Assembly: GCF_900635455.1 (NCBI RefSeq)
Contig: NZ_LR134116.1
Span: 3,410,001-3,474,000, forward strand
DNA from: Yersinia intermedia
GTDB lineage: Bacteria; Pseudomonadota; Gammaproteobacteria; Enterobacterales; Enterobacteriaceae
Direction: 5' to 3'
Length of the DNA: 64,000 nucleotides
This document shows positions 656 through 30,700 of the stretch, piece after piece (positions within the stretch are counted from its first letter, which is position 1; each line of letters begins with the position of its first letter). The notes beneath the pieces are model-generated. The model saw only the letters and a program-made list of their open reading frames with translations, was not told the DNA's origin and ran no database searches. The translations under genes were made by a program, and so were the position numbers.

Positions 656-1789
656 CTATTCTTTAAAATCTGCAGAAATAATTTCAATTAACCTCTCAGT
701 GGCTTTATTTTCATCAAATTTCTCTACTGCAATCTTACGGCTTGCTTTTCCCATAGAAATAATGCGATTAGGGTTTTCAATATAAACAACCATTGCATTC
801 ACTAAAGCAGCCACATCCCATGGTGGGATTAAATATCCATTGTAACCATCAATAACTGTTTCCCGGCAACCAGGAACATCAGTAGTTATCACTGCTCTTC
901 CTATCGACATTGCTTCTTGAGTACTTCTTGGAACTCCTTCTCTGTATGAAGGTAAGACAAAAACACTAACCTCCTCTAAAAAATGTTTAATTTCAACAAG
1001 TTGCCCTAAAAAACTAACATTACCTTCATTTTCCCATTCATCAACTTGAGCTTGATTTATTCCTCCTGGGTTATTATCAACAGAGCCTGCTATACTAAAA
1101 CGTACCAATGGATATTTTGATTTTACTATTTTTGCAGCCTGAACAAATTCTCTTACACCTTTTTCAACAAGAAGCCGTGAAACCATTCCAAAATGAATAC
1201 TCTTAACCTTGGGCTCAGTGTAAGCATATCCATCAAGATCAACTCCAATCCCACCGATAATGTCATAATCCTTAACTTTAATATTGCTGTGCAATATGAG
1301 ATCACTATAATCATCTTTATTTAAAAATAAGACTTTATTTGCTAATGGAAGCGAAATTTTATATAACCAAGTTTGTACTTTCCTCAATACTTTTTTACGC
1401 CATGACTCCTCATGCGAATGTGAGGTGAAACAGAAACCTAACCCTTCCAGAAGTAAGTAAATATCATTTACACCTGCAACCTTAGCAGCAATTGAGCCAA
1501 AGATAACGGGTTTTGGAAAGAAACATAGGACAACATCAGGTTTTATTTTTTTTATTTTCTTCGACAATCTATATGTGTTTACAAAATCGGATAATGGATT
1601 CATTCCTGAACGTGAAAACTGATAAAAACTAGGTTTTGCTCCCATCTTTTTTATTTTATCAAAATTCTCTTGATCATTATCTATTGTCAATGTTTCAACA
1701 CTTATACCACGCCCAGCAAGAACCTGAATAATTTTTTTCCTGAATAAAACTATCGTACTAGACTGATTTCCAATTAGTAGCACCTTCAT
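656..1789 (-). CDS. glycosyltransferase family 4 (O-antigen)
   Basis: A 377-residue GT-B fold protein. The N-terminal half starts MKVLLIGNQ and contains KIKPDVVLCFFPKP near residues 82-95. The C-terminal half has the retaining GT4 signature: FGMVSRLLVEKGV near residue 200, then VFVLPSYREGVPRSTQEAMSIGRAVI near residues 278-303, which includes the conserved Glu pair that contacts the sugar nucleotide. It should act at the cytoplasmic face, adding one sugar of the O-unit to undecaprenyl diphosphate. Only 3 bases separate it from the upstream glycosyltransferase, so the two are cotranscribed. The overall look is close to PglA-type N-acetylhexosaminyl transferases, but the donor and acceptor cannot be read from sequence. 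Confidence 0.88.
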   Translation of the reverse strand: MKVLLIGNQSSTIVLFRKKIIQVLAGRGISVETLTIDNDQENFDKIKKMGAKPSFYQFSRSGMNPLSDFVNTYRLSKKIKKIKPDVVLCFFPKPVIFGSIAAKVAGVNDIYLLLEGLGFCFTSHSHEESWRKKVLRKVQTWLYKISLPLANKVLFLNKDDYSDLILHSNIKVKDYDIIGGIGVDLDGYAYTEPKVKSIHFGMVSRLLVEKGVREFVQAAKIVKSKYPLVRFSIAGSVDNNPGGINQAQVDEWENEGNVSFLGQLVEIKHFLEEVSVFVLPSYREGVPRSTQEAMSIGRAVITTDVPGCRETVIDGYNGYLIPPWDVAALVNAMVVYIENPNRIISMGKASRKIAVEKFDENKATERLIEIISADFKE

Positions 1790-1792
1790 ATA

Positions 1793-2878
1793 TTAAACCT
1801 TATAAATCTTCAGCCACTGTTGCACTATATTTTTTATAGAAAAATTATCAATAACTCTCTGTCTATTTCTTGATAAGATCGAACTAATTTCTTCGTCAGA
1901 ATAATTAAGTACTTCAGTTATTTTTTCCGCCAGTGCTTTACTATCTGAAATAGGAACAACAAGTTGCGAGTTTCCCACAACTTCTGCAACACCTCCAGCA
2001 TCAGTGACGACCAATGGTCTCTCACAAGACATAGCTTCCGCAACAACTAAGCCAAAGCCCTCCCAACGAGAGGAAAGTACAAATAAATCGCAGGCTGAAT
2101 ACCACTCTTCTACATTTTTCTGCATTCCAAGCCAATGGACACGTTCGTCGCAGTTTAAATTTATAGCCAATTTTTTTAACTGATCATCCAACTCCCCCGA
2201 ACCGATTATTGCCAATTGAGCTTTTGGTACCATATCTAAACATGCAAATGCTCTAAGTAGGTTAGGATAATCTTTTGCTTCAGTTAATCGCCCAATAGCT
2301 AGTAACAGTGGCGTTGAATTTCCTACGCCTAGTTCGTTTCTTTTTATTTCGCGCCATTCAGAATTAAATATGAATTTTTTGTGGTCTATACCATTATGAA
2401 GTGCAACTATTTTGTCTTTCCTAGTAGCGCCTTTAGCGATGAACTCTTCCACTGCCTCCTGACTCACGTTCGTTGAGACATCGGCCAAAAAGTCAGTTAA
2501 GCGATATGCTAGCATTCGAATACGCCCCCCCTCATTTTTACTATGAGCGGTGCTTATCAAAATTGGAATATATGTAGTTAAACGTAATAAACGTGAAAAA
2601 ATATTCGCATGAACCATATGGCTATGTATAATATCAGGAGAGAAACTTTTTATTATTTGACGGGCCTTCAGGTAGGACTTTACCACCCCCAGAAAAGTTC
2701 TTTTCATATTTAAATTAACTACTTTAATTTTCAAATTTTTAGGCTTACAAATCACCTCACCAGACAAACAAATAATCATGATATTATGCCCTTGGAAAGA
2801 TAGCTCATCCGAAAGGTCACATAATTGCCTTTCAGCACCACCGAGACCAAGACCTGTAATTGTGAATAAAATATTCAT
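1793..2878 (-). CDS. glycosyltransferase family 4 (O-antigen)
   Basis: A 361-residue GT4 enzyme. It opens with the acceptor-side glycine-rich loop ITGLGLGGAERQLCDL (residues 7-22), carries HSHMVHANIFSRL near residue 85, and has the donor-side block LLAIGRLTEAKDYPNLLRAF near residue 190 followed by LFVLSSRWEGFGLVVAEAM near residue 265 with the usual two glutamates. Length and layout are full for the family. It lies 9 bases after wzy and 3 bases before the next glycosyltransferase. Inferred role: one linkage of the O-repeat unit on the lipid carrier. The exact sugar is unknown. Confidence 0.9.
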   Translation of the reverse strand: MNILFTITGLGLGGAERQLCDLSDELSFQGHNIMIICLSGEVICKPKNLKIKVVNLNMKRTFLGVVKSYLKARQIIKSFSPDIIHSHMVHANIFSRLLRLTTYIPILISTAHSKNEGGRIRMLAYRLTDFLADVSTNVSQEAVEEFIAKGATRKDKIVALHNGIDHKKFIFNSEWREIKRNELGVGNSTPLLLAIGRLTEAKDYPNLLRAFACLDMVPKAQLAIIGSGELDDQLKKLAINLNCDERVHWLGMQKNVEEWYSACDLFVLSSRWEGFGLVVAEAMSCERPLVVTDAGGVAEVVGNSQLVVPISDSKALAEKITEVLNYSDEEISSILSRNRQRVIDNFSIKNIVQQWLKIYKV

Positions 2879-2887
2879 AGTTCGTCA

Positions 2888-4025
2888 TTACCTCGAACCT
2901 TTATCTTCTATTGAAGAAAGCCACTTTTCGTGTGCCAAATCATGAAGTCCATTATTATCATAGAATATATAAGAAGAATTCACTTCTAATTGATAAAATG
3001 ATATAGGTGCATTTGGATTTCTAAAATAAGAAGCTAGATTAAAAACGATAAAAAGGGCAAATAAACAATATGCTCTAAATAGTTTGAGGCTTAACAATCT
3101 AGAAAACACATTACCTTGTAAAGAAAAGTATAATACAACAACAAAATAGAAGTAGTAAGAAATCCTGACCAAGAAAGGTATCGAGGAACTAAAAAGATGT
3201 ATAATGGCACCAAGATAGATTAGTCTAACCAACAAGTCATCTTTATATTTTATATTTCTATGTTTTATATTAAAAAAACAAACTAGTATAAAAATAAAAT
3301 CCAATATATTCAGAAAACCAAACTTCAATAAGACGCCATAAGACGATAAATAATAATTTATTTTTTCAAAAACAAAATTAAAACCCGCAAGAGAACTGAA
3401 TAGATGACCAGATAAAAAAATCAAACAAAATAAGACTATAGCTAGCAGCAAAGAAATTAAAAAAAATGATTTATCATTTTTTATTTTCATGAGAAAGAAT
3501 ATAGGTATTATTGCTATAGCTGACGCATGAAAACATGATGCAACAATGACCCAGCGAAAATATCCTTTTTGTAAAAACACAAAACACAGGAACGAGTAAA
3601 ACACTATAATACAAGCAATATACTGCCTAAGCTGTTCTAGAATCAAAGAGTAGCCAAAAACTAAAACTATAAAAGCAAAAAAATAAGGTTGATTACAGTT
3701 AACTTTGAAAAGAATAAAGGATAAAAGAAAAAAACAGATTAGATAGAATAGTAAAATTGAAGTTCCAAAATCTCCAAATGATAAATATAATAACAACTTG
3801 AAAAAATAAACAAAACCAAATTCAAAAATAGAAAATGGAGTACCTCCTTCAATGAAGGATAAAAAAATATATACTCCAATCATTTCCATTTAAATAGAAT
3901 ATAGAAAATGCCACAGATAACCATAGCACAGATAAAAATGAGATTACCACTTTAAGTCTAAAATTAACCTTATTCCATAGAGTAGAAAGAAGTAGTAAAG
4001 GAAACGAGACAAAAAGTATATACAT
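2888..4025 (-). pseudogene. wzy: O-antigen polymerase Wzy (EpsG-like), reading frame split by a 1-base shift
   Basis: Two adjoining frames together make one polytopic membrane protein. The first (3849-4025, 58 residues, starting MYILFVSFP) begins 2 bases after the upstream glycosyltransferase stop, has a GGGA ribosome site, and reaches NGNDWSIYFF before a stop. The second (2888-3889, 333 residues) carries on with LSFIEGGTPFSIFEFGF and about nine more hydrophobic segments. The join falls on a run of seven A (plus strand 3861-3867). Removing one base gives a continuous 378-residue protein with GNDW..Y and E.GF spaced as in EpsG-family polymerases. Wzy joins O-units in the periplasm. As written, translation from the true start ends early, so the cell would make single-unit (semi-rough) O-antigen unless slippage restores the frame. 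A sequencing error at the homopolymer is also possible. Confidence 0.82.
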
Positions 4026-4027
4026 TT

Positions 4028-4921
4028 TTATCGTCCCATTCGATCGAGTATATAGATCATTATATGCAGTGGATCAAAAAACTTTAACCACCGAGAATAT
4101 TTAGGGAAACGAGAATTTAAATAAAAATAAAATTTATGATGTAAATAAGCTAAATAATGTTTTTTTTCCAATCTAAAATCATTTAGTCTAAATAAATCAG
4201 ATAAAAGTTTTTTGTTAATTCCTAAACCACTTTGTGTGGTTACTTGATTAGAGTGTATTCTGTACTCTACAGTTATTACATCCAAGAAAACAACATCCCT
4301 CTTTTCACATATAAGCTTAAGCCAAAGGGGGAGGTCCTCTAATAATTCATACCTCTCATTAAAGATGACACCTTCATCTCTAAAAAGAGAGTTGTTAATA
4401 AATGCAGCTGGGGCAAGGTTATTCAGATGTAACATTGCTAAAAATTCTTTACACCAACTGGCTTTTAATTTTATTACATACTTTGTCCATCCTAATGGAT
4501 AGATATTGCCAACTTCCACTCCGGAACCAAAAGTCTCAAATAAAGAAAAAATAACTATTGGCCGAATTTTAAACATATCGGAATACTTTACTAATTGGAC
4601 AATTGCATCTGGTTTCATTATATCATCAGAACCAATAAATTTAACCCAATCTCCTTGGCAGTATGGAATAGCTTTATTCAAGTTTTTCGGTATACCTTCA
4701 TTTTTACCACTGGTAATTAATATAATACGAACATTATTATTTGATTTTTTTTTATTTATCCACTCATTGCATATGTTTACAGTAGCATCGCTAGAATAAT
4801 CATCAGTTATTATTATTTCAATATTTTTATATAGCTGATTGATACAACTATCCAACGTTTCTTCGATAAAATGCTCCGCATTATACGATGCAACTACTAT
4901 TGATACTAATGGATTATACAT
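4028..4921 (-). CDS. glycosyltransferase family 2 (O-antigen)
   Basis: A 297-residue GT-A enzyme. It begins VSIVVASYNAEHFIEETLDS (residues 6-25), then has IEIIITDDYSSDAT near residue 35 (nucleotide-binding Asp pair) and WVKFIGSDDIMKPDAI near residue 93, where the SDD is the metal-binding DXD equivalent. The C-terminal part contains LLEDLPLWLKL, in which the ED is the probable catalytic base region of inverting GT2 enzymes. The gene starts 6 bases after the preceding GT2 stop, and its own stop is 2 bases before the wzy start. Donor and acceptor sugars are unknown. Confidence 0.9.
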   Translation of the reverse strand: MYNPLVSIVVASYNAEHFIEETLDSCINQLYKNIEIIITDDYSSDATVNICNEWINKKKSNNNVRIILITSGKNEGIPKNLNKAIPYCQGDWVKFIGSDDIMKPDAIVQLVKYSDMFKIRPIVIFSLFETFGSGVEVGNIYPLGWTKYVIKLKASWCKEFLAMLHLNNLAPAAFINNSLFRDEGVIFNERYELLEDLPLWLKLICEKRDVVFLDVITVEYRIHSNQVTTQSGLGINKKLLSDLFRLNDFRLEKKHYLAYLHHKFYFYLNSRFPKYSRWLKFFDPLHIMIYILDRMGR

Positions 4922-4927
4922 AAAAAT

Positions 4928-5923
4928 CTATTTCCAAAAAATAATCATACTGGTTAAAAATATTTGTGTCATTCCTTTAAAAGATATACTACGAATGTTA
5001 TTAAAGATATTTTTTCGGTAACATTTCAAACCATATTGAATACCATTAGACCACGCATCTCTATCTATGCCTACATTTTTCCATTGATAGTATCTTGATG
5101 CTACTCCCCATAAAGTACCAGCTTGTAGCTTAAGAGCTTTTTTTATTAAGTGATTAGAGGAATCAAATTCAAAACAAATATATTTAAATAATATTTCAGA
5201 ATTATAAATAACTTTAAAATAATTATCATTTATTCTGCGAACTGTAGAGTTAGGATTATTTACAAAAAAATATACTCCATCGCAATTAGTTACTACCAAG
5301 TTAGCCTTTGAATAACATATCCTAGCTATTACCTCATCATTATTTAAATAATTTACATTCTTAGTGTTCAACTTTTCGTAAGAAGCATAACTTTCTAATA
5401 GATTTTTTTTCCTGTATATTCCGAAACCATGCAACCCCCAAGAGTCTATACAAGCGTAAAATGCTTCTGCTCCTGAAACTAATGTTCTATCAGTATATAA
5501 CTGAAAAGGTTTACCATTTTCAACTCTATCTGAATTACTTACATGTAATAACTTAAACAAAACAATATCAACCATAACTCCATTTTTTGAAAAAAAATAA
5601 CTCATCGCGGAACTAATAGCATCTTGTGATAACGAGTCATCACAATCTACAAAAGCAATATAGTTACCATTTGCATTTTTAACTCCAGTTTTTCGTGCTT
5701 CGGCAGCACCCATATTATTTTGTTTAATATAGCGAACTTTATTGTCGTTTCTTTTTAAAGCTATTTTTTTTATTATATCCAGAGTATGATCTGTTGAACC
5801 ATCATCAATAAATAAAATCTCAATAAATTTGTAACTCTGACTCAGTAGGACAGAACATATATGTTGTAAATTTTTCTCTTCATTAAACGTAGGAACAACA
5901 ATAGTACATAACATATTACTCAT
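4928..5923 (-). CDS. glycosyltransferase family 2 (O-antigen)
   Basis: A 331-residue GT2 enzyme with CTIVVPTFNEEKNLQHI (residues 6-22), IEILFIDDGSTDHTLDII (about 34-51) and YIAFVDCDDSLSQDAI near residue 88; the DCDD is the metal-binding motif. A conserved NNDEVIARIC stretch near residue 190 is the likely catalytic acid/base region. Its start lies inside the end of wzx (8-base overlap), pointing to translational coupling. It is expected to transfer one sugar to the lipid-linked O-unit in the cytoplasm. The specificity cannot be inferred. Confidence 0.9.
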   Translation of the reverse strand: MSNMLCTIVVPTFNEEKNLQHICSVLLSQSYKFIEILFIDDGSTDHTLDIIKKIALKRNDNKVRYIKQNNMGAAEARKTGVKNANGNYIAFVDCDDSLSQDAISSAMSYFFSKNGVMVDIVLFKLLHVSNSDRVENGKPFQLYTDRTLVSGAEAFYACIDSWGLHGFGIYRKKNLLESYASYEKLNTKNVNYLNNDEVIARICYSKANLVVTNCDGVYFFVNNPNSTVRRINDNYFKVIYNSEILFKYICFEFDSSNHLIKKALKLQAGTLWGVASRYYQWKNVGIDRDAWSNGIQYGLKCYRKNIFNNIRSISFKGMTQIFLTSMIIFWK

Positions 5924-7184
5924 TTGATATCTTTCCTAAATGAGCCATATAAACAAACACAACCACAATTAAATATAGTCCATAATTTAACATATAGGCT
6001 AAACTCACAGCTATCAAACCAGAAGAACTAATAAGTAGATATGTCAAAAGCGGAAACAGAGCACTGAATACTATTTCTAGAATTGCATTTATTTTAAAAT
6101 AGCCTTTGGCAAGTAATATTGTCGCGAACAACCAACTGGTAATTCTTAGTACATCACCAATATTTTGATAGAAAAACAGAACATTTGCTCGATAAAAATC
6201 TTTTGAAAACAATAAATAAATAATAAAATCTCTCAAAAAATAAATAGTTAGAGACATTAAAACGGCCATTGGGATAACAACTAAAGCACCCTTTTTGAGA
6301 ATACTTAGGTAGTCAGATCTTAATTTTGCGGCTGCTGTTTTTGGAAAATAGTACACAGTAAGGGCAGTTGTCAACACTGCCAGGTAAGCTTCAGATATTT
6401 TTGAAACAGCCTGCCAATAGCCAGCATCCGTTAATGATAAATGACTTGATAGTATAGAGCGAACTATAATTAGAGATATTGGCCCTGTAAATGCACCGAT
6501 TACACCCATGAAAAAATAATTTCTCATTTCGAGTAATTTTTTTCGTTCTGTAGGCCCAAACCAATATTTAGCACTAAACCAATATTGTCGATACAGTAAT
6601 AGCACTAACCAAAAACCTGCGATTGCATTATTTAACGCAGCAGATATAAGTGCACCAGTCAAACCATAAAAATAAACTAAAAAAGACATTGAAACGAGTG
6701 ATGACAATATTGCGAGAACATTGGCAATAAAGTAACGCTTATAATCTGACAGCCCGTTTAATACACCTAGAAATAAGCTATTAGCCACATTCAGTGGTAT
6801 AACTAGCAGAGCTAAAATAACTAACCAATAAAACTTCTCATTATGAAAAAGCCATATGGCTAATTTTTCTGATAATAAGACACCTATTATTATTATGACT
6901 GTACTTGCAGCAATCGATAACTTAAGAGCTGCACGCCAGAATAATGCGGCAGCACTATAGTCATGACTATTCTCAGCTGTATACCTATTTACACCTTGAG
7001 AAACTTGAGATGCAATAAATCCATTAATAAATGTAACAAAATTCTGTAACTGCCCCAAAGCAGCTAACCCCGAGGGCCCTGTATATACAGCTACTACCTT
7101 AGAAATAAAGAAACCACAAACAAGCCTTAACAAAGTCACAATCCCACTTAGGATAGTGACTTGCGTAAAATTCAATTTGGCCAC
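5916..7184 (-). CDS. wzx: O-antigen flippase Wzx
   Basis: A 422-residue, almost wholly hydrophobic protein with about 12 predicted membrane spans. The N-terminus resembles polysaccharide transporters of the MATE/MOP group: [36 protein letters not shown] in residues 6-41, with the GP..LA.LGQ motif shared by Wzx proteins that move ECA or O-units. It would flip the undecaprenyl-linked repeat unit to the periplasmic face, where Wzy polymerises it. It overlaps the aminotransferase gene by 13 bases and the next glycosyltransferase by 8, so the block is one transcription unit. The family call is firm; the substrate is inferred from context only. Confidence 0.9.
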
Positions 7185-8290
7185 CGGTTAATTACATTAA
7201 TTACATGTTGAACATCAGATGAACACATACTTGGATCCATCGGAATAGATAGAACGCTTGCATGTAGTTTTTCTGAAATAGGATATGATAATGTCGCTAG
7301 CTCTTTATATGCGGCCTGCTTGTGTGGAGGGATCGGATAATGAACTAGAGTTTGAATATTATTGTCTGCTAGATACGCTTGAAAACTTTCGCGATTACTG
7401 ACCTGAATAACAAACAAATGCCATACATGTGATAGCACCCCTCCATTCACGCTTGGTAGTATTATGCTATCAGAGATAATTTCGTTTAAGTAGCGTTTTG
7501 CAATTTCCATACGCTTTTTATTATTCAAATCTAGGTACTTAAGCTTAACACTAAGTACTGCTGCCTGAAGCTCATCTAACCGACTATTAACCCCTTGATA
7601 TTTATTTTGATATTTTACGTGTGAACCATAATTTCTCAATGCATATAAAACCTGTGCTAAATCATCATTATTTGTAGTGATCGCTCCAGCATCGCCTAGT
7701 GCACCTAGATTTTTCCCTGGATAGAAGCTAAATGCACCAGCATCTCCCCATGCACCAACCTTCACTCCATCAACTACTGCGCCATGAGCTTGGGCACAAT
7801 CTTCTAGAACCAGAAGACTATTTTCTTTAGCTATCAGAGTTAAATCAGCAATAGAACAAGCTTGCCCATACAAATGAACTGGCAATAATACTTTTGTCTT
7901 TTTAGTTATTAGTCGACGAATACAATTTGCATCAATATTGAATGTTTCAGGATTAGGTTCAACTAGTACTGGGATTAAATTATTTTGTGAGATAGCTAAT
8001 ATAGATGCAATATAAGTATTTGATGGCACCAAAACCTCATCGCCATCTTGCAAGAAACCGAGTTCTTTCCAAGCCCGCAATACAAGAATTAATGCATCCA
8101 ATCCATTAGCCACGCCAATACAATATTTCACACCACAATAACTAGCAAATTCATGCTCAAATTTTTTAAGTCTCTCGCCCATTATATACCAACCAGAATC
8201 AAACACATCCTTCATAGCTAAGAGTATTTCATCTGACTGAGCCATGTTTATTCTTTTTAAATCTAAAAACTTTACCATTTCATTTACCAT
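7172..8290 (-). CDS. fdtB: dTDP-3-oxo-6-deoxyhexose aminotransferase (FdtB/QdtB type)
   Basis: A 372-residue PLP enzyme of the DegT/DnrJ/EryC1 sugar aminotransferase family. Lys193 in [14 protein letters not shown] is the Schiff-base lysine; Asp164 in [10 protein letters not shown] contacts the PLP ring nitrogen; the GLDAL loop near residue 63 and LPVHLYGQ near residue 136 are also typical. It follows an FdtA-like ketoisomerase and an acyltransferase, so it should aminate C3 of dTDP-3-oxo-6-deoxyhexose to dTDP-3-amino-3,6-dideoxyhexose (Fuc3N or Qui3N). The start overlaps the acyltransferase by 11 bases; an in-frame ATG four codons in (8278) is an alternative that removes the overlap. Confidence 0.88.
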
Positions 8291-8816
8291 TAATTAAACG
8301 ATTAAATTTTAATTTAAATTTTTCGTAACATGTACGTGTGAATTCGTAATTATTATTAATATCATCTTCACCGCAAAAAACCGCACCGGTTTTTTCGTGA
8401 AATGAAACAACTGTTTTATTTTTTTTATCCACTTGAAAATATGCGGAGTCAAATCCAATATGCTCGAAAGCGTACTGGTAAACTAAATATGCACTTTCTA
8501 TTGCTGCTGTTCTAGTTTTGTTATTGTTTAATATCCAACTTCCCCAACAAAAACTTTTCCGACCTAAAAAATCATAGAGTCGCACTGTTCCAATGGAAAG
8601 TTCAGAGTCAAGCAACTCAATTATAAAATAAAATTCCTCGCCATTTTTTTCTCTATTTTTATATTTTTTCAACCATTCTCTTTGCTGTAATTCTGTACCA
8701 GTTACTTTTGATATATGCTCATTTAATTTCTCATCTATACGTAGTGAGTATATGAAGCTAGCATCATCAGGGCTTGCTAATCGAAGCTGAATAGTTTTGC
8801 CTTTTATCTTATCCAT
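8280..8816 (-). CDS. GNAT-family sugar N-acyltransferase
   Basis: A 178-residue protein that looks like the RimJ/RimL-type GNAT fold: [16 protein letters not shown] (residues 12-27), [24 protein letters not shown] near residues 60-83, and [19 protein letters not shown] near residues 128-146, the last matching the usual N..S...YEK.GF block. Between the ketoisomerase and aminotransferase it most likely puts the acyl group on the 3-amino sugar, the step called FdtC/QdtC elsewhere. The well-studied QdtC is a hexapeptide-repeat acetyltransferase, whereas this is a GNAT, so the acyl donor (acetyl or other) is open. It overlaps fdtA by 8 bases. Confidence 0.78.
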
Positions 8817-9213
8817 TCTTTTCAGCCTCTCTTATAAACTCGTCGTAATTTCGAATATAATCAGCCTCATCATAAAAATCATCAGCAAGAACCATCAAAA
8901 CACAATCATCTGAAAAATCATACATCTCATGCCATATCATAGGCTCAATAGCAAGTCCTTGCGCCGGATTATCAAGGTAGACTTCTATTTTCTCGAACCC
9001 ATCATCTAAAATTATTCTACATGCCCCACGAACAGGAATGGCCAATTGCTGAAGCTTATAATGAGCATGAAATCCACGGTGTACATCATTAATAGTTTCA
9101 AACATATAATACACGCGCTTGATAGAGAAAGGGATGTTTTTAGTTTCCTCAAGTGCGATAAGCTGACCTCTTTCATCACCATGCTTCTGTAATTGAATTA
9201 ATTTGACGTCCAT
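8809..9213 (-). CDS. fdtA: dTDP-4-oxo-6-deoxyglucose 3,4-ketoisomerase (FdtA/QdtA type)
   Basis: A 134-residue cupin. Key features are DERGQLIALEETKNIPF at residues 13-29, RVYYMFET near residue 33, the catalytic HAH at 49-51 (RGFHAHYK), and WHEMYDFS near residue 93. These belong to the WxcM-like/FdtA family, which moves the keto group of dTDP-4-oxo-6-deoxyglucose from C4 to C3. Whether the product has the galacto (FdtA) or gluco (QdtA) configuration cannot be settled by eye. It is the first gene of the operon and has a good AAGGAA ribosome site. Its substrate must come from RmlA/RmlB-type enzymes, which are not in this window. Confidence 0.88.
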   Translation of the reverse strand: MDVKLIQLQKHGDERGQLIALEETKNIPFSIKRVYYMFETINDVHRGFHAHYKLQQLAIPVRGACRIILDDGFEKIEVYLDNPAQGLAIEPMIWHEMYDFSDDCVLMVLADDFYDEADYIRNYDEFIREAEKNG

Positions 9214-10090
9214 TATGTTCCTTAGAAATTAAACGTTTCAGGAAGAGACTACAAAAACCTCATAACAAGGACTGGTAGAAGATACTATTCATCTCTAGTC
9301 AAATCGACTTAAAAGTCCCTTTCCTGTAGCATATATACTGTTATGTAATGTACACCAGATTATAATATCAATTATATCACCAATTCTTATGCGACAATCT
9401 TCCTCACTCAAATACATCGCTATTATTTTTATAAAGCTCTTTCACTATTTTACTTTCAGTAATCTATAAAACAACGCAATTACTCTAATATACTTTATTT
9501 TTATTTCTAAGAGAAATAAAAATTATACAAAGTTCATTCAAAATAAACCATTAACATTTAAAATAGATAAGCTAATTTGGACATCAGCACCACAATTAAT
9601 AGAGATTCCTCCCTCATTAATCTAATCTCTTTTATCGAAAAACGTTCAGAGACAGTCATTAGTTTTAGTTTAATTCTGCACCAGTTAACTAGCATTAATT
9701 ATTATGTTAGATTTAGAATTTGAGCAATTAGTAAATATAAATCCATTGTAAACATTCTTATTAGTTATGACGCCATGTTGATTTTATTCTACTTCACCTG
9801 CAATTAATTTCTCCTACAAAAGAAAAAAGTACAGCATTCACAACTATATCCGATACTAATATCGTTACTGACACAGCATTGTTAAATTCAATTCCTAATA
9901 ACTAAAATGTTAATTTAAAAATAGCATAAATTCAAACTCAGCTAATTTATATAAAAGGGGCATTAATATTTTGACTTTTCACACCAATAATATCGATATG
10001 CATGTCGAGTATAAAACTTTATTTAATTTCTAAAAGAAGAGATTATTCAATTAAAATCATGCAATTACGCCAAAAACATTGAATTATAGA
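9214..10090 (-). other. long untranslated leader between JUMPStart and fdtA
   Basis: Almost 0.9 kb of very AT-rich sequence lies between the ops element and the first O-antigen gene. Stop codons are dense in every frame, and no gene remnant, IS end or strong terminator was recognised. If transcription starts before JUMPStart, this whole stretch is leader RNA that RNA polymerase must cross, a setting in which RfaH antitermination would matter. It may also be what is left after deletion of genes from the cluster. Confidence 0.55.
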
Positions 10091-10128
10091 TATGCTACCG
10101 CCCTTGGCTTACAGCAACCAATGCGCTG
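10091..10128 (-). promoter_or_regulatory. JUMPStart element with ops site (RfaH recruitment)
   Basis: Read on the minus strand, the segment starts CAGCGCATTGGTTGCTG, continues TAAGCCAAGG and ends in the ops octamer GGCGGTAG followed by CATA. This matches the 39-bp JUMPStart consensus found ahead of O-antigen, capsule and LPS-core operons. RfaH binds the ops hairpin in the paused transcription complex and suppresses termination through long operons. Its position between hemH and fdtA, reading into the cluster, is what is expected. Confidence 0.92.
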
Positions 10129-10485: not shown

Positions 10486-11445
10486 CTACAAATGATCTCT
10501 AACTAGCTGTTCTAAAAGGTCTATATGCCCCTCATCGTCATTCAATGCTGGGATATACTCAAATTTCTCGCCACCAGCGTGCATGAAAATCTCCCTGTTC
10601 TGCTCCTTGATCTCCTCCAGTGTTTCAAGACAATCGGCAGAAAAACCGGGGCAGATAAGCTGAATATGCTTAATACCTTGAGCTGGAAGACTTTTTAGTG
10701 TCTCGTCTGTATAAGGGGTTAACCAAGGTTCGCGGCCAAAGCGAGACTGATATGTCATCATGATGTGTTCGGCTGGTAACGCCAACTTGCCACGTAAAGC
10801 ACGGCTGGTATCTTCACAGCGTTGTGGATAATCATCCCCCAGTCGGGCATAGCGCTTAGGAATACCATGGAAGGAAAGGATTAATCTGTCAGGTTTACCA
10901 TGCTGCACAAAAGTCCGTTCAACACTTTGTTGTAACGCCGAAATATAGGCGGGATGTTCTGCATAATCACGGATAAAAGAGACTGACGGCAACCGACGGT
11001 ACCCTTTCAGAATACGGGCAACAGCGTCCCACACAGCCGCACTGGTTGAACAGGAATATTGCGGATAAAGCGGCAAAACCACCAGCTTAGTCACCCCTTG
11101 GGCTAACAACTTATCAATAGCATCTGGCAGATTTGGTGAACCATAACTCATGCCTAACTCAACGGGGATCTCTGGCATACGTGCCGCCAATGCTTTCTGT
11201 TGCCGCCGACTATAGACCAATAACGGTGACCCCTCTTCCATCCAGACTGATTGGTATAATTTAGCCACGCGAGGAGATCGAATAGGCAAAATGACGCCAC
11301 GCAACAAAGGCCACCACAGCCATGGGGAAGTATCAACCACCCGGCGGTCACTCAGGAACTCAGCCAGATAGCGTTTTACTGCTTGCGGTGTTGGGGCGTC
11401 CGGTGTCCCCAAGTTGACCATTAATACGCCGAGCTTGCTTTGCAT
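10486..11445 (-). CDS. hemH: ferrochelatase
   Basis: A 319-residue protein, the usual length for the enterobacterial enzyme, which inserts Fe2+ into protoporphyrin IX as the last step of haem synthesis. It contains [19 protein letters not shown] at the N-terminus, [17 protein letters not shown] near residue 122, [12 protein letters not shown] near residue 188 with the metal-binding His, and [14 protein letters not shown] near residue 273 with the partner Glu. It follows adk with a gap of about 120 bases. In Yersinia the O-antigen cluster is inserted downstream of this gene, as here. Confidence 0.97.
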
Positions 11446-20045: not shown

Positions 20046-20426
20046 TCAGCGCCGTTTTTGTTGCGATAGGTCAATAACTGGCATTCGCCACATAAAGGCC
20101 AACAGTAGGGTTAACATGATAAGTAATATGCCTCTCACCCACCAGATTTTCACCAACCAAAGTGAAACAGCAAATGTAAGTATGGTAATGAATATTGCTT
20201 TCGACTTAGTGCCCGCAGGCAATGCTCGATGTTGTTGCCAGGTACGTATATAGCTGCCAAACCATGAACGATAGAGCAACCAGTGATGAAATCGAGGGGA
20301 GGATCGTGCAAAACACCAGGCAGCCAACAGCAAAAACGGCGTAGTAGGTAACAAAGGAAGCACGACACCTAACGTTGCCAATATCACTGCCAGCCAACCC
20401 ACCGTTATTAAAAACCAACGAGACAT
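20046..20426 (-). CDS. ybaN: DUF454 inner-membrane protein YbaN
   Basis: A 126-residue membrane protein. The N-terminal spans read WFLITVGWLAVILATLGVVLPLLPTTPFLLLAAWCFARSSPRFHHWL, containing the family's LP.TPF..LA..CF..SSPR core, and a second hydrophobic region lies near residues 78-112. Function is not established. It is divergent from priC, as in E. coli. Confidence 0.93.
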   Translation of the reverse strand: MSRWFLITVGWLAVILATLGVVLPLLPTTPFLLLAAWCFARSSPRFHHWLLYRSWFGSYIRTWQQHRALPAGTKSKAIFITILTFAVSLWLVKIWWVRGILLIMLTLLLAFMWRMPVIDLSQQKRR

Positions 20427-20607
20427 AAGCTCCCTTTATTAGCACTTTAATGAGACGTTATCATTAACCCATGCGTTGACCATCATCAACAGATATTCTT
20501 GCCATAACTTACACGATACATCGGTATCTATTGTATTTCCCCTCCCTCGTGCTTGTATCTGCCACCATTCGAAGGCAAGCTGGCGGGAAATGCCCAGGAG
20601 AAGCGCC

Positions 20608-21144
20608 ATGAGTACGGAAAAATTATTGCAGGTGCTTGAAAGCCAAATTGAAGCGCTGTCGGCACAAGTTGGCCCTCAGGCAAACACGCCGTCTCAGCAA
20701 GCCCGTTTTGATCTCAACCTGTTTGGTAATCATGGTAATCGGTTTCGCGATTATCTACAGGAAGTACGGAAAAATATGGCACAACTGAAGCAAGTAGTTG
20801 CAGAAAATCGCACACAACAGGTCGCTTTTCTGGCTGAAAAGCTGGTTGCTCAGATTTCTGCATTACAAAGAGAATTAGCCACTCAAAAATTAAGAAAATC
20901 AAATCCTGAGCCCAGGGATAACAAATTGGACCCTTACCATAAGCTGGCTGAGCATCAGGATTATGAGCGGCGGATACTGGCAATGATTCACGATAGAGAG
21001 AGCCAACTGGGTAAGCAAAGTTTGTTATCCGAGCAGCAGAAAATACAGAAGGAGCTCGCAGCACTTGAGGGGCGTCTAATGCGCTGCCGGCAGGCGTTGA
21101 TAAGAATAGAGCGCAGTATTGAGAAAAAAGAGAACGGTTTTTGA
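20608..21144 (+). CDS. priC: primosomal replication protein N'' (PriC)
   Basis: A 178-residue replication-restart protein that reloads DnaB at stalled forks. It is rich in Gln, Arg and Lys and largely helical: LLQVLESQIEALSAQV at residues 5-20, FDLNLFG near residue 34, FRDYLQEVRKNMAQLKQVV near 46-64 and LAEHQDYERRILAMIHDRESQL near 112-133. The ATG at 20608 is chosen because a CAGGAGAA ribosome site precedes it and the length matches the family; the frame is open further upstream without support. Confidence 0.93.
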   Translation: MSTEKLLQVLESQIEALSAQVGPQANTPSQQARFDLNLFGNHGNRFRDYLQEVRKNMAQLKQVVAENRTQQVAFLAEKLVAQISALQRELATQKLRKSNPEPRDNKLDPYHKLAEHQDYERRILAMIHDRESQLGKQSLLSEQQKIQKELAALEGRLMRCRQALIRIERSIEKKENGF

Positions 21145-26529: not shown

Positions 26530-27717
26530 ATGAGCAAAAACAGAGGGGTAATGCCTCTGGCTGCAATTCTGGTACTTTCAGGCAGCTTAGTACTTATAGG
26601 ATGTAATGATAAAGATGCGGCGCAAGCCCATGCTCAACAGGCACCTGAAGTCGGTATTGTGACATTAAAAGCCGCACCACTGAATATCACAACCGATCTA
26701 CCGGGTCGCACGTCCGCATTCCGTGTTGCAGAAGTTCGCCCACAAGTTAGCGGGATCATTCTTAAACGTAACTATGTTGAAGGCAGTGATGTCACCGCCG
26801 GAACATCACTTTATCAAATTGATCCAGCCACATATCAAGCCGCTTATGACAGCGCCAAAGGTGATTTAGCTAAAGCACAAGCTGCCGCTGAAATTGCCCG
26901 CTTGACGGTAAATCGCTACAAACCATTGCTAGGTACCAATTACATTAGTAAGCAAGAATATGACCAAGCCGTGTCTAGCTCGATGCAGGCTAATGCAAGT
27001 GTTCTGGCAGCAAAAGCTGCTGTAGAAACTGCACGTATCAACCTGGCATATACTCAGGTTACTTCGCCAATCAGTGGTCGTACCGGTAAATCTTCAGTCA
27101 CTGAAGGTGCGTTGGTAACCAGTGGTCAGGCAACGGCAATGACGACAGTTCAGCAGCTTGACCCGATGTATGTCGATGTTACTCAATCAAGCGACGAATT
27201 CTTGCGCCTGAAAAAAGAGCTGGCTGATGGCACGTTGAAGCAAGAAAATGGCAAGGCCAAGGTTCGCTTGTTACTGGAAAACGGCGTTGAATACGCACAA
27301 ACCGGTACATTGGAATTCTCAGGTGTCACCGTTGATGAAACTACCGGTTCAATCACCATCCGTGCCATCTTCCCTAACCCGAACGAGGCATTACTGCCTG
27401 GCATGTTTGTTCGTGCCCGTTTAGATGAAGGTGTCAGACCTGATGCGCTGCTGGTGCCTCAACAGGGAGTGACACGTAACCCGCGTGGCGAAGCAACTGC
27501 CATGGTTGTTGGCGCAGATGACAAAGTTGAAATGCGCACACTGGTTGCTAATCAAGCGATTGGGAATAAATGGTTGGTTACTGAAGGATTGAAAGCAGGT
27601 GATCGTCTTATTGTTTCCGGCTTGCAGAAAATCAGACCGGGCGTGCAGGTAAAAGTGCAGGAAGTTACTGACCCGGCGCAAAAAGCAGCTCCGGCTGATA
27701 CAGCGAAGAAGTCTTAA
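26530..27717 (+). CDS. acrA: multidrug efflux periplasmic adaptor AcrA
   Basis: A 395-residue membrane-fusion lipoprotein. The lipobox LIGC puts the acylated Cys at 25. The lipoyl/hairpin region includes VRPQVSGIILKRNYVEGSDV near residues 70-89 and a coiled coil (AKAQAAAEIARLTVNRY, about 111-127); the beta-barrel has ITSPISGRTG-type sequence near 176-186. It bridges AcrB and an outer-membrane TolC channel, which is encoded elsewhere. It lies 16 bases before acrB in one operon. Confidence 0.97.
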   Translation: MSKNRGVMPLAAILVLSGSLVLIGCNDKDAAQAHAQQAPEVGIVTLKAAPLNITTDLPGRTSAFRVAEVRPQVSGIILKRNYVEGSDVTAGTSLYQIDPATYQAAYDSAKGDLAKAQAAAEIARLTVNRYKPLLGTNYISKQEYDQAVSSSMQANASVLAAKAAVETARINLAYTQVTSPISGRTGKSSVTEGALVTSGQATAMTTVQQLDPMYVDVTQSSDEFLRLKKELADGTLKQENGKAKVRLLLENGVEYAQTGTLEFSGVTVDETTGSITIRAIFPNPNEALLPGMFVRARLDEGVRPDALLVPQQGVTRNPRGEATAMVVGADDKVEMRTLVANQAIGNKWLVTEGLKAGDRLIVSGLQKIRPGVQVKVQEVTDPAQKAAPADTAKKS

Positions 27718-27733
27718 AAGGAGCCGGTAATTC

Positions 27734-30700
27734 ATGGCTAAGTTCTTTATAGATCGCCCTATTTTCGCTTGGGTTCTCGCCATCATTTTGATGTTGGCTG
27801 GTGCCCTTGCGATTATGAAATTACCCGTTGCGCAATATCCAACCATTGCGCCGCCGGCAATTACAATCTCCGCCAACTATCCTGGCGCCGATGCGACTAC
27901 TGTTCAGAATACAGTAACGCAGGTTATCGAACAGAACATGAACGGTATCGATAACCTGCTGTACATGTCTTCCAGCAGTGATTCATCCGGTAACGTTCAG
28001 TTGACGTTGACCTTTAACTCAGGCACTGACCCGGATATCGCTCAGGTTCAGGTCCAGAACAAACTGCAATTAGCCATGCCATTACTGCCGCAAGAAGTGC
28101 AGCAGCAAGGTGTGAGCGTTGAAAAGTCCAGTAGTAGCTTCCTGATGGTTGCCGGCTTTATTTCTGAAGACGGCACCATGCAACAAGAAGATATTGCGGA
28201 CTATGTGGGTTCTAACGTTAAAGATCCCATTAGCCGTACCCTCGGTGTGGGGGATGTTCAGTTGTTTGGTTCCCAATACGCAATGCGTATCTGGATGGAT
28301 CCGCACAAACTGAATAACTTCAAACTGACACCGGTTGATGTTATTAACGCCATTAAAGTACAGAACAACCAAGTGGCGGCAGGTCAGTTAGGGGGGACAC
28401 CACCTGTACCCGGTCAAGAACTGAACTCATCAATCATTGCGCAGACCCGCTTAACCAATGCAGAAGAGTTCAGTCAGATCTTGTTGAAAGTGAATACTGA
28501 CGGTTCTCAGGTTCGACTAAAAGATGTGGCTATCGTTAAACTGGGGGCTGAAAGCTATAACATCATCGCCCGTTATAACGGTAAACCTGCGGCAGGGATC
28601 GGTATTAAACTGGCAACCGGTGCTAACGCCCTGGACACCTCTGCGGCAGTAAAAGCTGAACTGGCGAAATTACAACCCTTCTTCCCTAATGGGTTAAAAG
28701 TGGTTTATCCGTACGACACCACGCCATTCGTTAAAATCTCCATTAACGAAGTGGTTAAAACACTGATTGAAGCCATCATCTTGGTGTTCCTGGTCATGTA
28801 TCTGTTCTTGCAGAACTTCCGGGCAACGTTGATTCCAACGATTGCAGTACCGGTCGTATTGCTGGGTACTTTCGCTATTCTCTCCGCCTTTGGCTATTCG
28901 ATAAACACCCTAACGATGTTCGGGATGGTGTTGGCGATAGGTCTATTGGTCGATGACGCCATCGTGGTGGTAGAGAACGTCGAACGTGTGATGCAAGAGG
29001 AAGGGTTACCACCGAAAGAAGCCACCAAAAAGTCTATGGAGCAAATCCAGGGCGCATTGGTGGGGATCGCGATGGTACTGTCGGCGGTATTTATCCCGAT
29101 GGCCTTCTTTGGCGGCGCAACTGGGGCAATCTATCGTCAGTTCTCTATCACCATCGTTTCTGCCATGGTGCTTTCGGTTCTGGTGGCATTGATTCTGACA
29201 CCCGCACTGTGCGCAACAATGCTGAAACCGATTACCAAAGGTGAACATGGCCCGAGTACCGGCTTCTTCGGCTGGTTTAACCGCATGTTTGAGAAAAGCA
29301 CCCATCATTACACTGACAGCGTTGCCAATATTTTGCGCAGCACTGGCCGTTATTTGGTGATCTATCTGGTGATTGTGATTGGTATGGGTGTGTTGTTCCT
29401 GCGCTTACCGACATCATTCTTACCAGAAGAAGATCAGGGTGTGTTCCTGACCATGGTGCAAATGCCTGCAGGGGCGACGCAAGAACGTACTCAGAAAGTG
29501 CTTAATCAGGTTACTGACTATTATCTCGACAAAGAAAAAGACGTGGTTAACTCAGTATTTACCGTTAACGGCTTCGGTTTCAGTGGTCAGGGTCAGAACA
29601 CCGGTCTGGCATTCGTCAGTCTGAAAAACTGGGATGAGCGCCCAGGTGACCAGAACAAAGTTCCGGCAATCGTCGGCCGCGCATCTGCTGCCTTCTCGCA
29701 AATCAAAGACGGTTTGGTATTCGCCTTTAACTTGCCAGCGATTGTGGAGCTGGGTACCGCTACCGGCTTTGACTTCCAGTTAATTGATCAAGGTAACCTT
29801 GGGCATCAAAAATTAACTGAAGCGCGTAACCAACTGCTCGGCATGGCGGCGCAACACGCAGATATGCTGGTCGGAATGCGGCCGAACGGACTGGAAGATA
29901 CACCTCAGTTCAAAGTGGAAGTTGATCAGGAAAAAGCACAAGCTCTTGGTGTTTCTATTTCCGATATCAATACCACGCTCGGTTCAGCAATGGGCGGCAG
30001 TTACGTAAACGACTTTATCGACCGTGGTCGTGTGAAGAAAGTTTATGTACAGGCTGATGCGCCTTTCCGTATGTTACCGGATGATATTGATAAGTGGTAT
30101 GTCCGTAACAGCACGGGTCAAATGGTGTCGTTTAATAACTTCTCCACCGCGAAATGGGAATACGGCTCACCTCGACTTGAACGTTACAACGGTCTGCCAT
30201 CCATGGAAATTCTGGGACAAGCAGCGCCGGGTAAGAGTACCGGTGAGGCAATGGACCTGATGCAAGAGCTGGCGGCTAAATTGCCAAGCGGCATTGGTTA
30301 TGATTGGACAGGCATGTCTTATCAAGAACGTCTGTCAGGTAACCAGGCTCCAGCGTTGTATGCCATCTCACTGATTGTGGTGTTCTTATGTCTGGCTGCG
30401 CTGTATGAAAGCTGGTCGATTCCATTCTCAGTTATGTTGGTAGTGCCACTGGGTGTCGTGGGTGCGTTACTGGCGGCCTCGTTGCGTGGCCTCAATAACG
30501 ACGTTTACTTCCAGGTCGGCTTATTGACCACTATCGGGCTATCGGCTAAGAACGCCATCTTGATTGTTGAGTTTGCTAAAGACTTAATGGACAAAGAAGG
30601 TAAAGGCTTGGTGGAATCAACGTTGGAAGCAGTACGTATGCGTCTGCGCCCAATTCTGATGACATCACTGGCCTTTATCCTAGGGGTTCTGCCACTGGTT

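What the first reader, a model, noticed from the sequence alone, without database searches (positions are those of the whole stretch)
3849..4025. wzy is split by a one-base shift at a seven-A run
The 58-residue frame 4025-3849 and the 333-residue frame 3889-2888 join into one EpsG-like polymerase of 378 residues if one base is removed from the A7 run at 3861-3867. The upstream frame begins 2 bases after the previous gene and has a ribosome site, so it is the real start. Homopolymer slippage could switch O-antigen polymerisation on and off (phase variation), or this strain may be semi-rough, or the base may be a sequencing error. Any annotation that starts wzy at 3889 would miss the first membrane segments.
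Basis: partly seen in the sequence, partly recalled or inferred. Interest (0 to 1): 0.75.

Follow-up and report, generated by a model that had tools for sequence, protein, structure and literature searches.

The report
Frameshifted O-antigen polymerase gene (wzy)
In this Yersinia genome the gene that chains sugar units into the cell's outer O-antigen coat is broken by a reading-frame shift at a run of seven identical bases, most likely a recent ordinary loss that would leave the cells with a short coat; there is no sign that the run is a built-in on/off switch.

Summary
Two overlapping minus-strand frames (58 aa, 4025-3849; 333 aa, 3889-2888) match consecutive parts of one EpsG-type O-antigen polymerase: residues 1-54 and 54-378 of an intact 378-aa Yersinia aldovae protein (81% and 86%). 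All 10 outside sequences found are single frames of 376-384 aa that begin in step with 4025; none begins at 3889. The break lies at the seven-base run 3861-3867.

The locus is a Yersinia-type hemH-gsk O-antigen cluster. Of 25 genus genomes only this one and Y. aldovae hold this polymerase. Both pieces still show purifying selection, so the break is recent. Of 59 ORFs of a near relative matched in the rest of the window, none is frame-broken there: a generally error-ridden assembly is unlikely, one miscalled run is not excluded. The run is not special: runs of 7 or more number 21 against 19.3 by codon permutation, and longer ones stay in frame.

Best reading: a recent loss-of-function frameshift, predicted semi-rough LPS. 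Phase variation is unproven. One hint for it: a near-identical glycosyltransferase from another assembly ends early at another run of this cluster.

The parts
3849..4025 (-). wzy 5' piece, 58 aa: true start of the polymerase gene; residues 1-54 are homologous to relatives, then a shifted tail to a stop
2888..3889 (-). wzy 3' piece, 333-aa frame; residues 9-333 homologous to residues 54-378 of Y. aldovae Wzy; EpsG PF14897
3861..3867 (.). seven-base run (A on +, T on the coding strand) at which homology passes from one frame to the other
4028..4921 (-). family-2 glycosyltransferase directly upstream, intact here (297 aa); split in Y. aldovae ATCC 35236; a near-identical protein of another assembly ends early
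4160..4167 (.). eight-base run in that glycosyltransferase, in frame here, at which the other assembly's protein P0009 departs
4928..5923 (-). family-2 glycosyltransferase of the same cluster
5916..7184 (-). Wzx-type flippase (Polysacc_synt), intact
7172..9213 (-). FdtB-, FdtC- and FdtA-like sugar genes (aminotransferase, acetyltransferase, ketoisomerase)
   Evidence: DegT_DnrJ_EryC1, Acetyltransf_3, FdtA; the Fdt names of the first two are by position and recalled
656..2878 (-). two family-4 glycosyltransferases downstream of wzy (656-1789 and 1793-2878), intact
   Evidence: Glycos_transf_1; 'family 4' by the N-terminal domains
10091..10128 (-). JUMPstart element of the O-antigen operon

Best explanation
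This is the O-antigen polymerase gene (EpsG-type wzy) of a Yersinia hemH-gsk O-antigen cluster, inactivated recently by a single replication-slip frameshift in an ordinary T7 run near codon 54. Translation from the true start at 4025 ends after 58 residues. An internal start at 3889 or 3883 has no good ribosome site, and any product would lack the first membrane segment(s) and an invariant Y-NG-DWS-Y stretch. Wzx, a wzz-like gene, the glycosyltransferases and ligase candidates are intact, so the cell is predicted to make O units, flip them and cap the lipid A core with one unit instead of a chain (semi-rough LPS). Shown here: the split, the homology, the true start, the intact neighbours and the recency. 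Inferred: that the base change is in the living strain, the loss of activity, and the LPS phenotype.
For: Pieces compared apart match consecutive parts of one protein. All 10 sequences found outside this genome (7 of the 8 proteins; the 3 loci, read) are one frame of 376-384 aa; their starts align with that of P0002, which the 58-aa piece matches from residue 1. Only the 3' piece hits EpsG, from profile position 30, whereas the four intact relatives scanned match from position 4-5. Y44, N46, G47, D49, W50, S51 and Y53, invariant in the 8 intact sequences of A2, lie in the 5' piece. dN/dS against Y. aldovae is 0.26 for the 3' piece, within the range of the other cluster genes (0.02-0.32), and 0.33 for the 5' piece (54 codons), just above it, with no further stop, so decay has barely begun. 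One EpsG match in the genome. Downstream a wzz-like 366-aa frame is open (named by eye). Three Wzy_C-family places, ligase candidates, have open frames of 414-563 aa. In the rest of the window 58 of 59 matched relative ORFs lie full length in one frame and the exception runs off the window end. Precedent: P. aeruginosa wzy lost mainly by single-base indels in homopolymer stretches under phage, with single-unit LPS (PMC10714927, passages). A non-functional wzy makes E. coli Nissle 1917 semi-rough (PMC7924626, passages).
Against: No reads and no second strain of this species could be examined at this run, so an error at one run is not excluded. Matched CDS outside the cluster hold only 6 runs of seven and none longer, so the error check has little power for long runs. 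The membrane loss rests on a simple hydropathy scan; structure prediction did not run to an end. Leaky decoding at such a run could leave some activity, as in V. cholerae wbeL* (PMC3441752, passages).
Confidence: 0.58

Rival explanations
1. Sequencing or assembly error: the run is miscalled and the living strain has an intact wzy.
For: Homopolymer miscalls are a usual error of some platforms; the authors of the 454 GS-20 Yersinia drafts call them rare but their commonest error (PMC2847712, passages). Both pieces look evolutionarily intact. The upstream glycosyltransferase is split in the 454 draft of Y. aldovae ATCC 35236. How this genome was sequenced is not known here.
Against: This genome is a single chromosome-sized contig. 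None of 59 matched relative ORFs is frame-broken in the rest of the window. The cluster's other 19 coding runs of seven or more lie inside ORFs that stay open.
Confidence: 0.24
2. Phase variation: the run slips reversibly and the population mixes chain-forming and single-unit cells, as a contingency locus.
For: V. cholerae O1 wbeL and manA vary at poly-A tracts of 8 and 9 (PMC3441752, passages). A glycosyltransferase of another assembly (278,601-bp contig) is identical to the window's for 253 residues and then ends early exactly where the window has an eight-base run, so run-length differences are recorded in this cluster among very close relatives. Against a first-order Markov null the cluster has twice the expected runs of 7 or more (20 against about 10).
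Against: Against codon permutation, which keeps the proteins, runs of 7 or more are 21 against 19.3, P=0.34. Longer runs (an 8 in wzy itself, a 9 and an 8 in the gene before it) stay in frame. No wzy of a second strain of this species could be read. [quoted passage not shown] no wbeL* revertant was recovered there, with only about 100 colonies tested.
Confidence: 0.1
3. Leaky decoding: RNA polymerase slippage or ribosomal frameshifting at the U7 run makes some full-length polymerase, so chains are short or sparse but not absent.
For: V. cholerae wbeL* with a broken-frame A7 tract still made shortened O antigen, and disrupting the tract abolished it (PMC3441752, passages).
Against: Ten of ten outside sequences encode the protein in one frame, so no relative seen uses frameshifting here. 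The Rfam gathering scan of the window found one frameshift element, that of dnaX; other shift signals were not searched for.
Confidence: 0.08

Closest known systems
Wzy of Yersinia aldovae (P0002; ATCC 35236 locus L004)
   Same: Same gene in the same gene order, 81-86% identical
   Different: One unbroken 378-aa frame there; in L004 the upstream glycosyltransferase is split instead
Homopolymer indels in Pseudomonas aeruginosa wzy selected by phage (PMC10714927, passages)
   Same: Frameshift in a wzy gene, mainly at homopolymer stretches there; such cells carry a single O unit
   Different: There seen as laboratory selection with LPS gels; here one genome, no phenotype
Semi-rough E. coli Nissle 1917 wzy (PMC7924626, passages)
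   Same: Non-functional wzy in an otherwise present O-antigen cluster
   Different: There a single nucleotide exchange (title of the paper cited there, not read), here a frameshift
Phase-variable V. cholerae O1 wbeL/manA poly-A tracts (PMC3441752, passages)
   Same: O-antigen pathway gene, run of identical bases early in the gene, short product after the shift
   Different: There repeated isolation of variants, manA reversion and leaky decoding are reported; here none can be tested

Membership tests
EpsG/Wzy O-antigen polymerase (PF14897) | Match over the curated cut-off | tested here: met
   3' piece 79.6 bits against 30.1; the 58-aa piece alone has no Pfam match
EpsG/Wzy O-antigen polymerase (PF14897) | Complete family domain in one frame | tested here: not met
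   3' piece starts at profile position 30; four intact relatives at 4-5
EpsG/Wzy O-antigen polymerase (PF14897) | Lies in an O-antigen cluster with wzx, glycosyltransferases and wzz | tested here: met
   (wzz named by eye)
Homopolymer phase-variable (contingency) locus | Run longer or commoner than composition explains | tested here: not met
   21 runs of 7 or more against 19.3 by codon permutation, P=0.34; a Markov null gives about 10; longer in-frame runs nearby
Homopolymer phase-variable (contingency) locus | On and off states both seen in strains or cells of one species | tested here: inconclusive
   No second wzy of this species read; a neighbour gene's variant P0009 is from another assembly
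Homopolymer phase-variable (contingency) locus | Reversible switching | not testable with these tools
   needs cultures or reads
Gene expressed by programmed frameshifting | Two-frame layout conserved in relatives | tested here: not met
   10 of 10 outside sequences are one frame
Semi-rough wzy mutant | Broken wzy with intact wzx, wzz and transferases | tested here: met
   by sequence only
Semi-rough wzy mutant | LPS core capped with one O unit | not testable with these tools
   needs an LPS gel

The most novel reading that the evidence does not exclude
The AT-rich O-antigen cluster shared by this species and Y. aldovae acts as a diffuse contingency region. Slips at ordinary A/T runs in adjacent genes (wzy here, the glycosyltransferase before it in another assembly and in Y. 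aldovae ATCC 35236) repeatedly toggle or shorten the O antigen, perhaps under phage pressure, without any single dedicated long tract.
Probability: 0.1. Interest if true: 0.5.

Novelty: new member of a known kind. Interest (0 to 1): 0.2.

Why it matters
A broken wzy in a reference genome changes how its serotype and LPS should be read, and the database protein hides it by starting late (331 aa, P0001). If run-length variation in this cluster proved real across strains, it would be a simple case of O-antigen variation by ordinary homopolymers in Yersinia. No title listed by the paper searches made (one search listed 12 of 24) reports this break; only passages of seven papers were seen.

Tried and rejected
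Rejected: the 333-aa frame as a gene of its own with a start at 3889 (0 of 10 outside sequences; no ribosome site seen by eye in the 25 bases before 3889 or 3883). Rejected: two separate genes. Rejected: a second EpsG polymerase elsewhere in the genome that could stand in (one match; other polymerase families were not searched except Wzy_C, three places not examined further). Rejected: old pseudogene. Rejected: programmed two-frame gene. Led nowhere: protein search with the 58-aa piece (no candidate shared three words); search for the cluster in E. coli genomes (no match); genome length as a search term to name the species (none of the 5 papers listed held it); solved structures (0 matches at E 1); promoter/terminator scan of 3700-4300 (promoter-like 1 against 3.5 in shuffles, terminator-like 1, at 3929-3908, against 0.2; not pursued). 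The inference that all 17 members of P0001's cluster are truncated was dropped: P0009 shows that the listed representative need not be the longest member.

Full report
What is there. The window carries a Yersinia-type O-antigen cluster on the minus strand: hemH (10486-11445, name by layout and recalled), a JUMPstart element (10091-10128), FdtA, acetyltransferase and aminotransferase sugar genes, a Wzx-type flippase, two family-2 glycosyltransferases, the split gene, two further glycosyltransferases and galE. Beyond the window follow a 366-aa wzz-like gene and gsk (L007; the names galE, wzz and gsk are read by eye from sequence and position, not from a family search). The hemH-gsk locus is where many Y. 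enterocolitica serotypes hold Wzx/Wzy-type clusters (PMC11380512, passages). Its closest polymerase relative is that of Y. aldovae.

The split. Compared apart, the 58-aa frame matches residues 1-54 and the 333-aa frame residues 54-378 of the intact Y. aldovae protein; a Hafnia relative gives the same picture for the 5' piece (56%). One search returned 8 proteins: the window's own P0001 and 7 others of 376-384 aa. One search returned 3 loci, all single open frames of 378, 381 and 384 aa. So 10 of 10 outside sequences are unbroken and start in step with 4025 (the 58-aa piece itself was compared with P0002 and P0003 only). P0002 and L004 are both Y. aldovae, so these are not 10 independent species.

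What is lost. The 3' piece matches EpsG from profile position 30, the four intact relatives scanned from position 4-5. Seven residues invariant in the 8 intact sequences of A2 (Y44, N46, G47, D49, W50, S51, Y53) lie in the 5' piece. A hydropathy scan puts a membrane segment at residues 20-46 of the 5' piece. No ribosome site is evident before 3889 or 3883.

How old. Against Y. aldovae, dN/dS is 0.33 for the 5' piece (54 codons, so imprecise) and 0.26 for the 3' piece; the other cluster genes compared range from 0.02 to 0.32. No stop interrupts either piece before its end. The gene was under purifying selection for most of the divergence and broke recently, or only in the sequence record.

Is it an error? 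The test was comparison with the nearest species, G008, over about 53 kb of aligned DNA. Its three stretches hold 64 mechanical ORFs of 100 aa or more; 60 hit the window, one of them at 74% and dropped by the 75% limit, leaving 59. Of these, 58 lie full length in one window frame; the other runs off the window end. Five of the 59 window matches hold in-frame stops: these are substitutions or frames that are not genes, not frame breaks. Seen from the window's side, 62 ORFs of 100 aa or more gave 54 with a match, 48 of them full length one to one; the other 6 differ in length, and their six counterparts each match in a single window frame. The DNA alignment shows 16 non-triplet indels inside CDS; added up by place they compensate one another. 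Matched CDS outside the cluster hold 6 runs of seven and none longer, so a platform that fails only at long runs would not show up. Error therefore stays possible.

Is it a switch? In the cluster, coding runs of 7 or more number 20, or 21 when the run shared by both pieces is counted twice; codon permutation within genes gives 19.3 (P=0.34), and for runs of 8 or more 8 against 5.6 (P=0.14). A first-order Markov null gives only about 10 of 7 or more against 20; I take this excess to reflect codon and residue content, since it goes away when the proteins are kept. In-frame runs of 8 (3459-3466 in wzy; 4160-4167) and 9 (4745-4753) are longer than the broken one. So nothing marks this run as a selected tract. 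Against my reading stands one hint: P0009, from a 278,601-bp contig that is not this genome's, is identical to the upstream glycosyltransferase for 253 residues and then ends after three other residues, at the window's eight-base run. Either that assembly errs or strains really differ there. In Y. aldovae ATCC 35236 the same glycosyltransferase is split into 129 and 135 aa; that genome is a 454 GS-20 draft whose authors name rare homopolymer miscalls as the commonest error (PMC2847712, passages; that the paper covers this very strain rests on its title, its Y. aldovae mentions and recall).

Where the cluster came from. This polymerase is found in 2 of 25 genus genomes, and a close Wzx in the same two; the other 23 match at 26-27% identity only. 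Cluster dS to Y. aldovae is 0.23-0.40, whereas htpG dS is 1.34. This suggests lateral exchange of the cluster after the species parted; it rests on one housekeeping gene, and the cluster is much richer in AT than the core, which may bias the comparison.

How it most likely works. With Wzx, transferases and a Wzz present and polymerase absent, single O units would be flipped and ligated, giving core-plus-one LPS, as in P. aeruginosa wzy mutants, where phage selection mainly yields single-base indels in homopolymeric stretches (PMC10714927, passages), and in E. coli Nissle (PMC7924626, passages). Some leak is possible, as V. cholerae wbeL* shows (PMC3441752, passages). These are analogies; nothing here measures LPS. 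Passages of PMC6712391 and PMC8538453 were also seen and held nothing on this gene.

Verdict. A correct and careful observation of a broken wzy, most likely real and recent, of a known kind. The switch idea is not supported by the sequence but is cheap to test with reads.

Noticed in passing
L004 4701-5598 (Y. aldovae ATCC 35236): The glycosyltransferase gene before wzy is split into 129-aa and 135-aa frames there, whereas the window's copy is intact; 454 GS-20 draft.
   Followed up: partly
4160-4167: P0009, from another assembly (278,601-bp contig), equals the window's glycosyltransferase for 253 residues and ends early at this eight-base run.
   Followed up: partly
4745-4753: In-frame nine-base A run in the glycosyltransferase, at the same place (offset 168) and length in Y. 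aldovae.
   Followed up: no
9214-10090: About 880 bases between JUMPstart and fdtA without any listed ORF of 50 aa or more on either strand; perhaps remnants of lost genes.
   Followed up: no
7172-9213: FdtA-type sugar genes are present, but none of the ten cluster frames scanned is an RmlA or RmlB; supply from the enterobacterial common antigen genes is a recalled possibility.
   Followed up: no
L007 18609-19075 (about 0.9-1.4 kb beyond window base 1): Between galE and wzz lie overlapping frames that look by eye like an insertion-sequence transposase remnant (not checked by a family search).
   Followed up: no
656-9213: Cluster shared with Y. aldovae at far lower synonymous divergence than htpG; its wzy and wzx are in 2 of 25 genus genomes: probable lateral transfer.
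   Followed up: partly
20341-21141 and 27352-27876: Two frames that are longer in the near relative G008 (267 and 175 aa) carry in-frame stops in the window (one and two).
   Followed up: no
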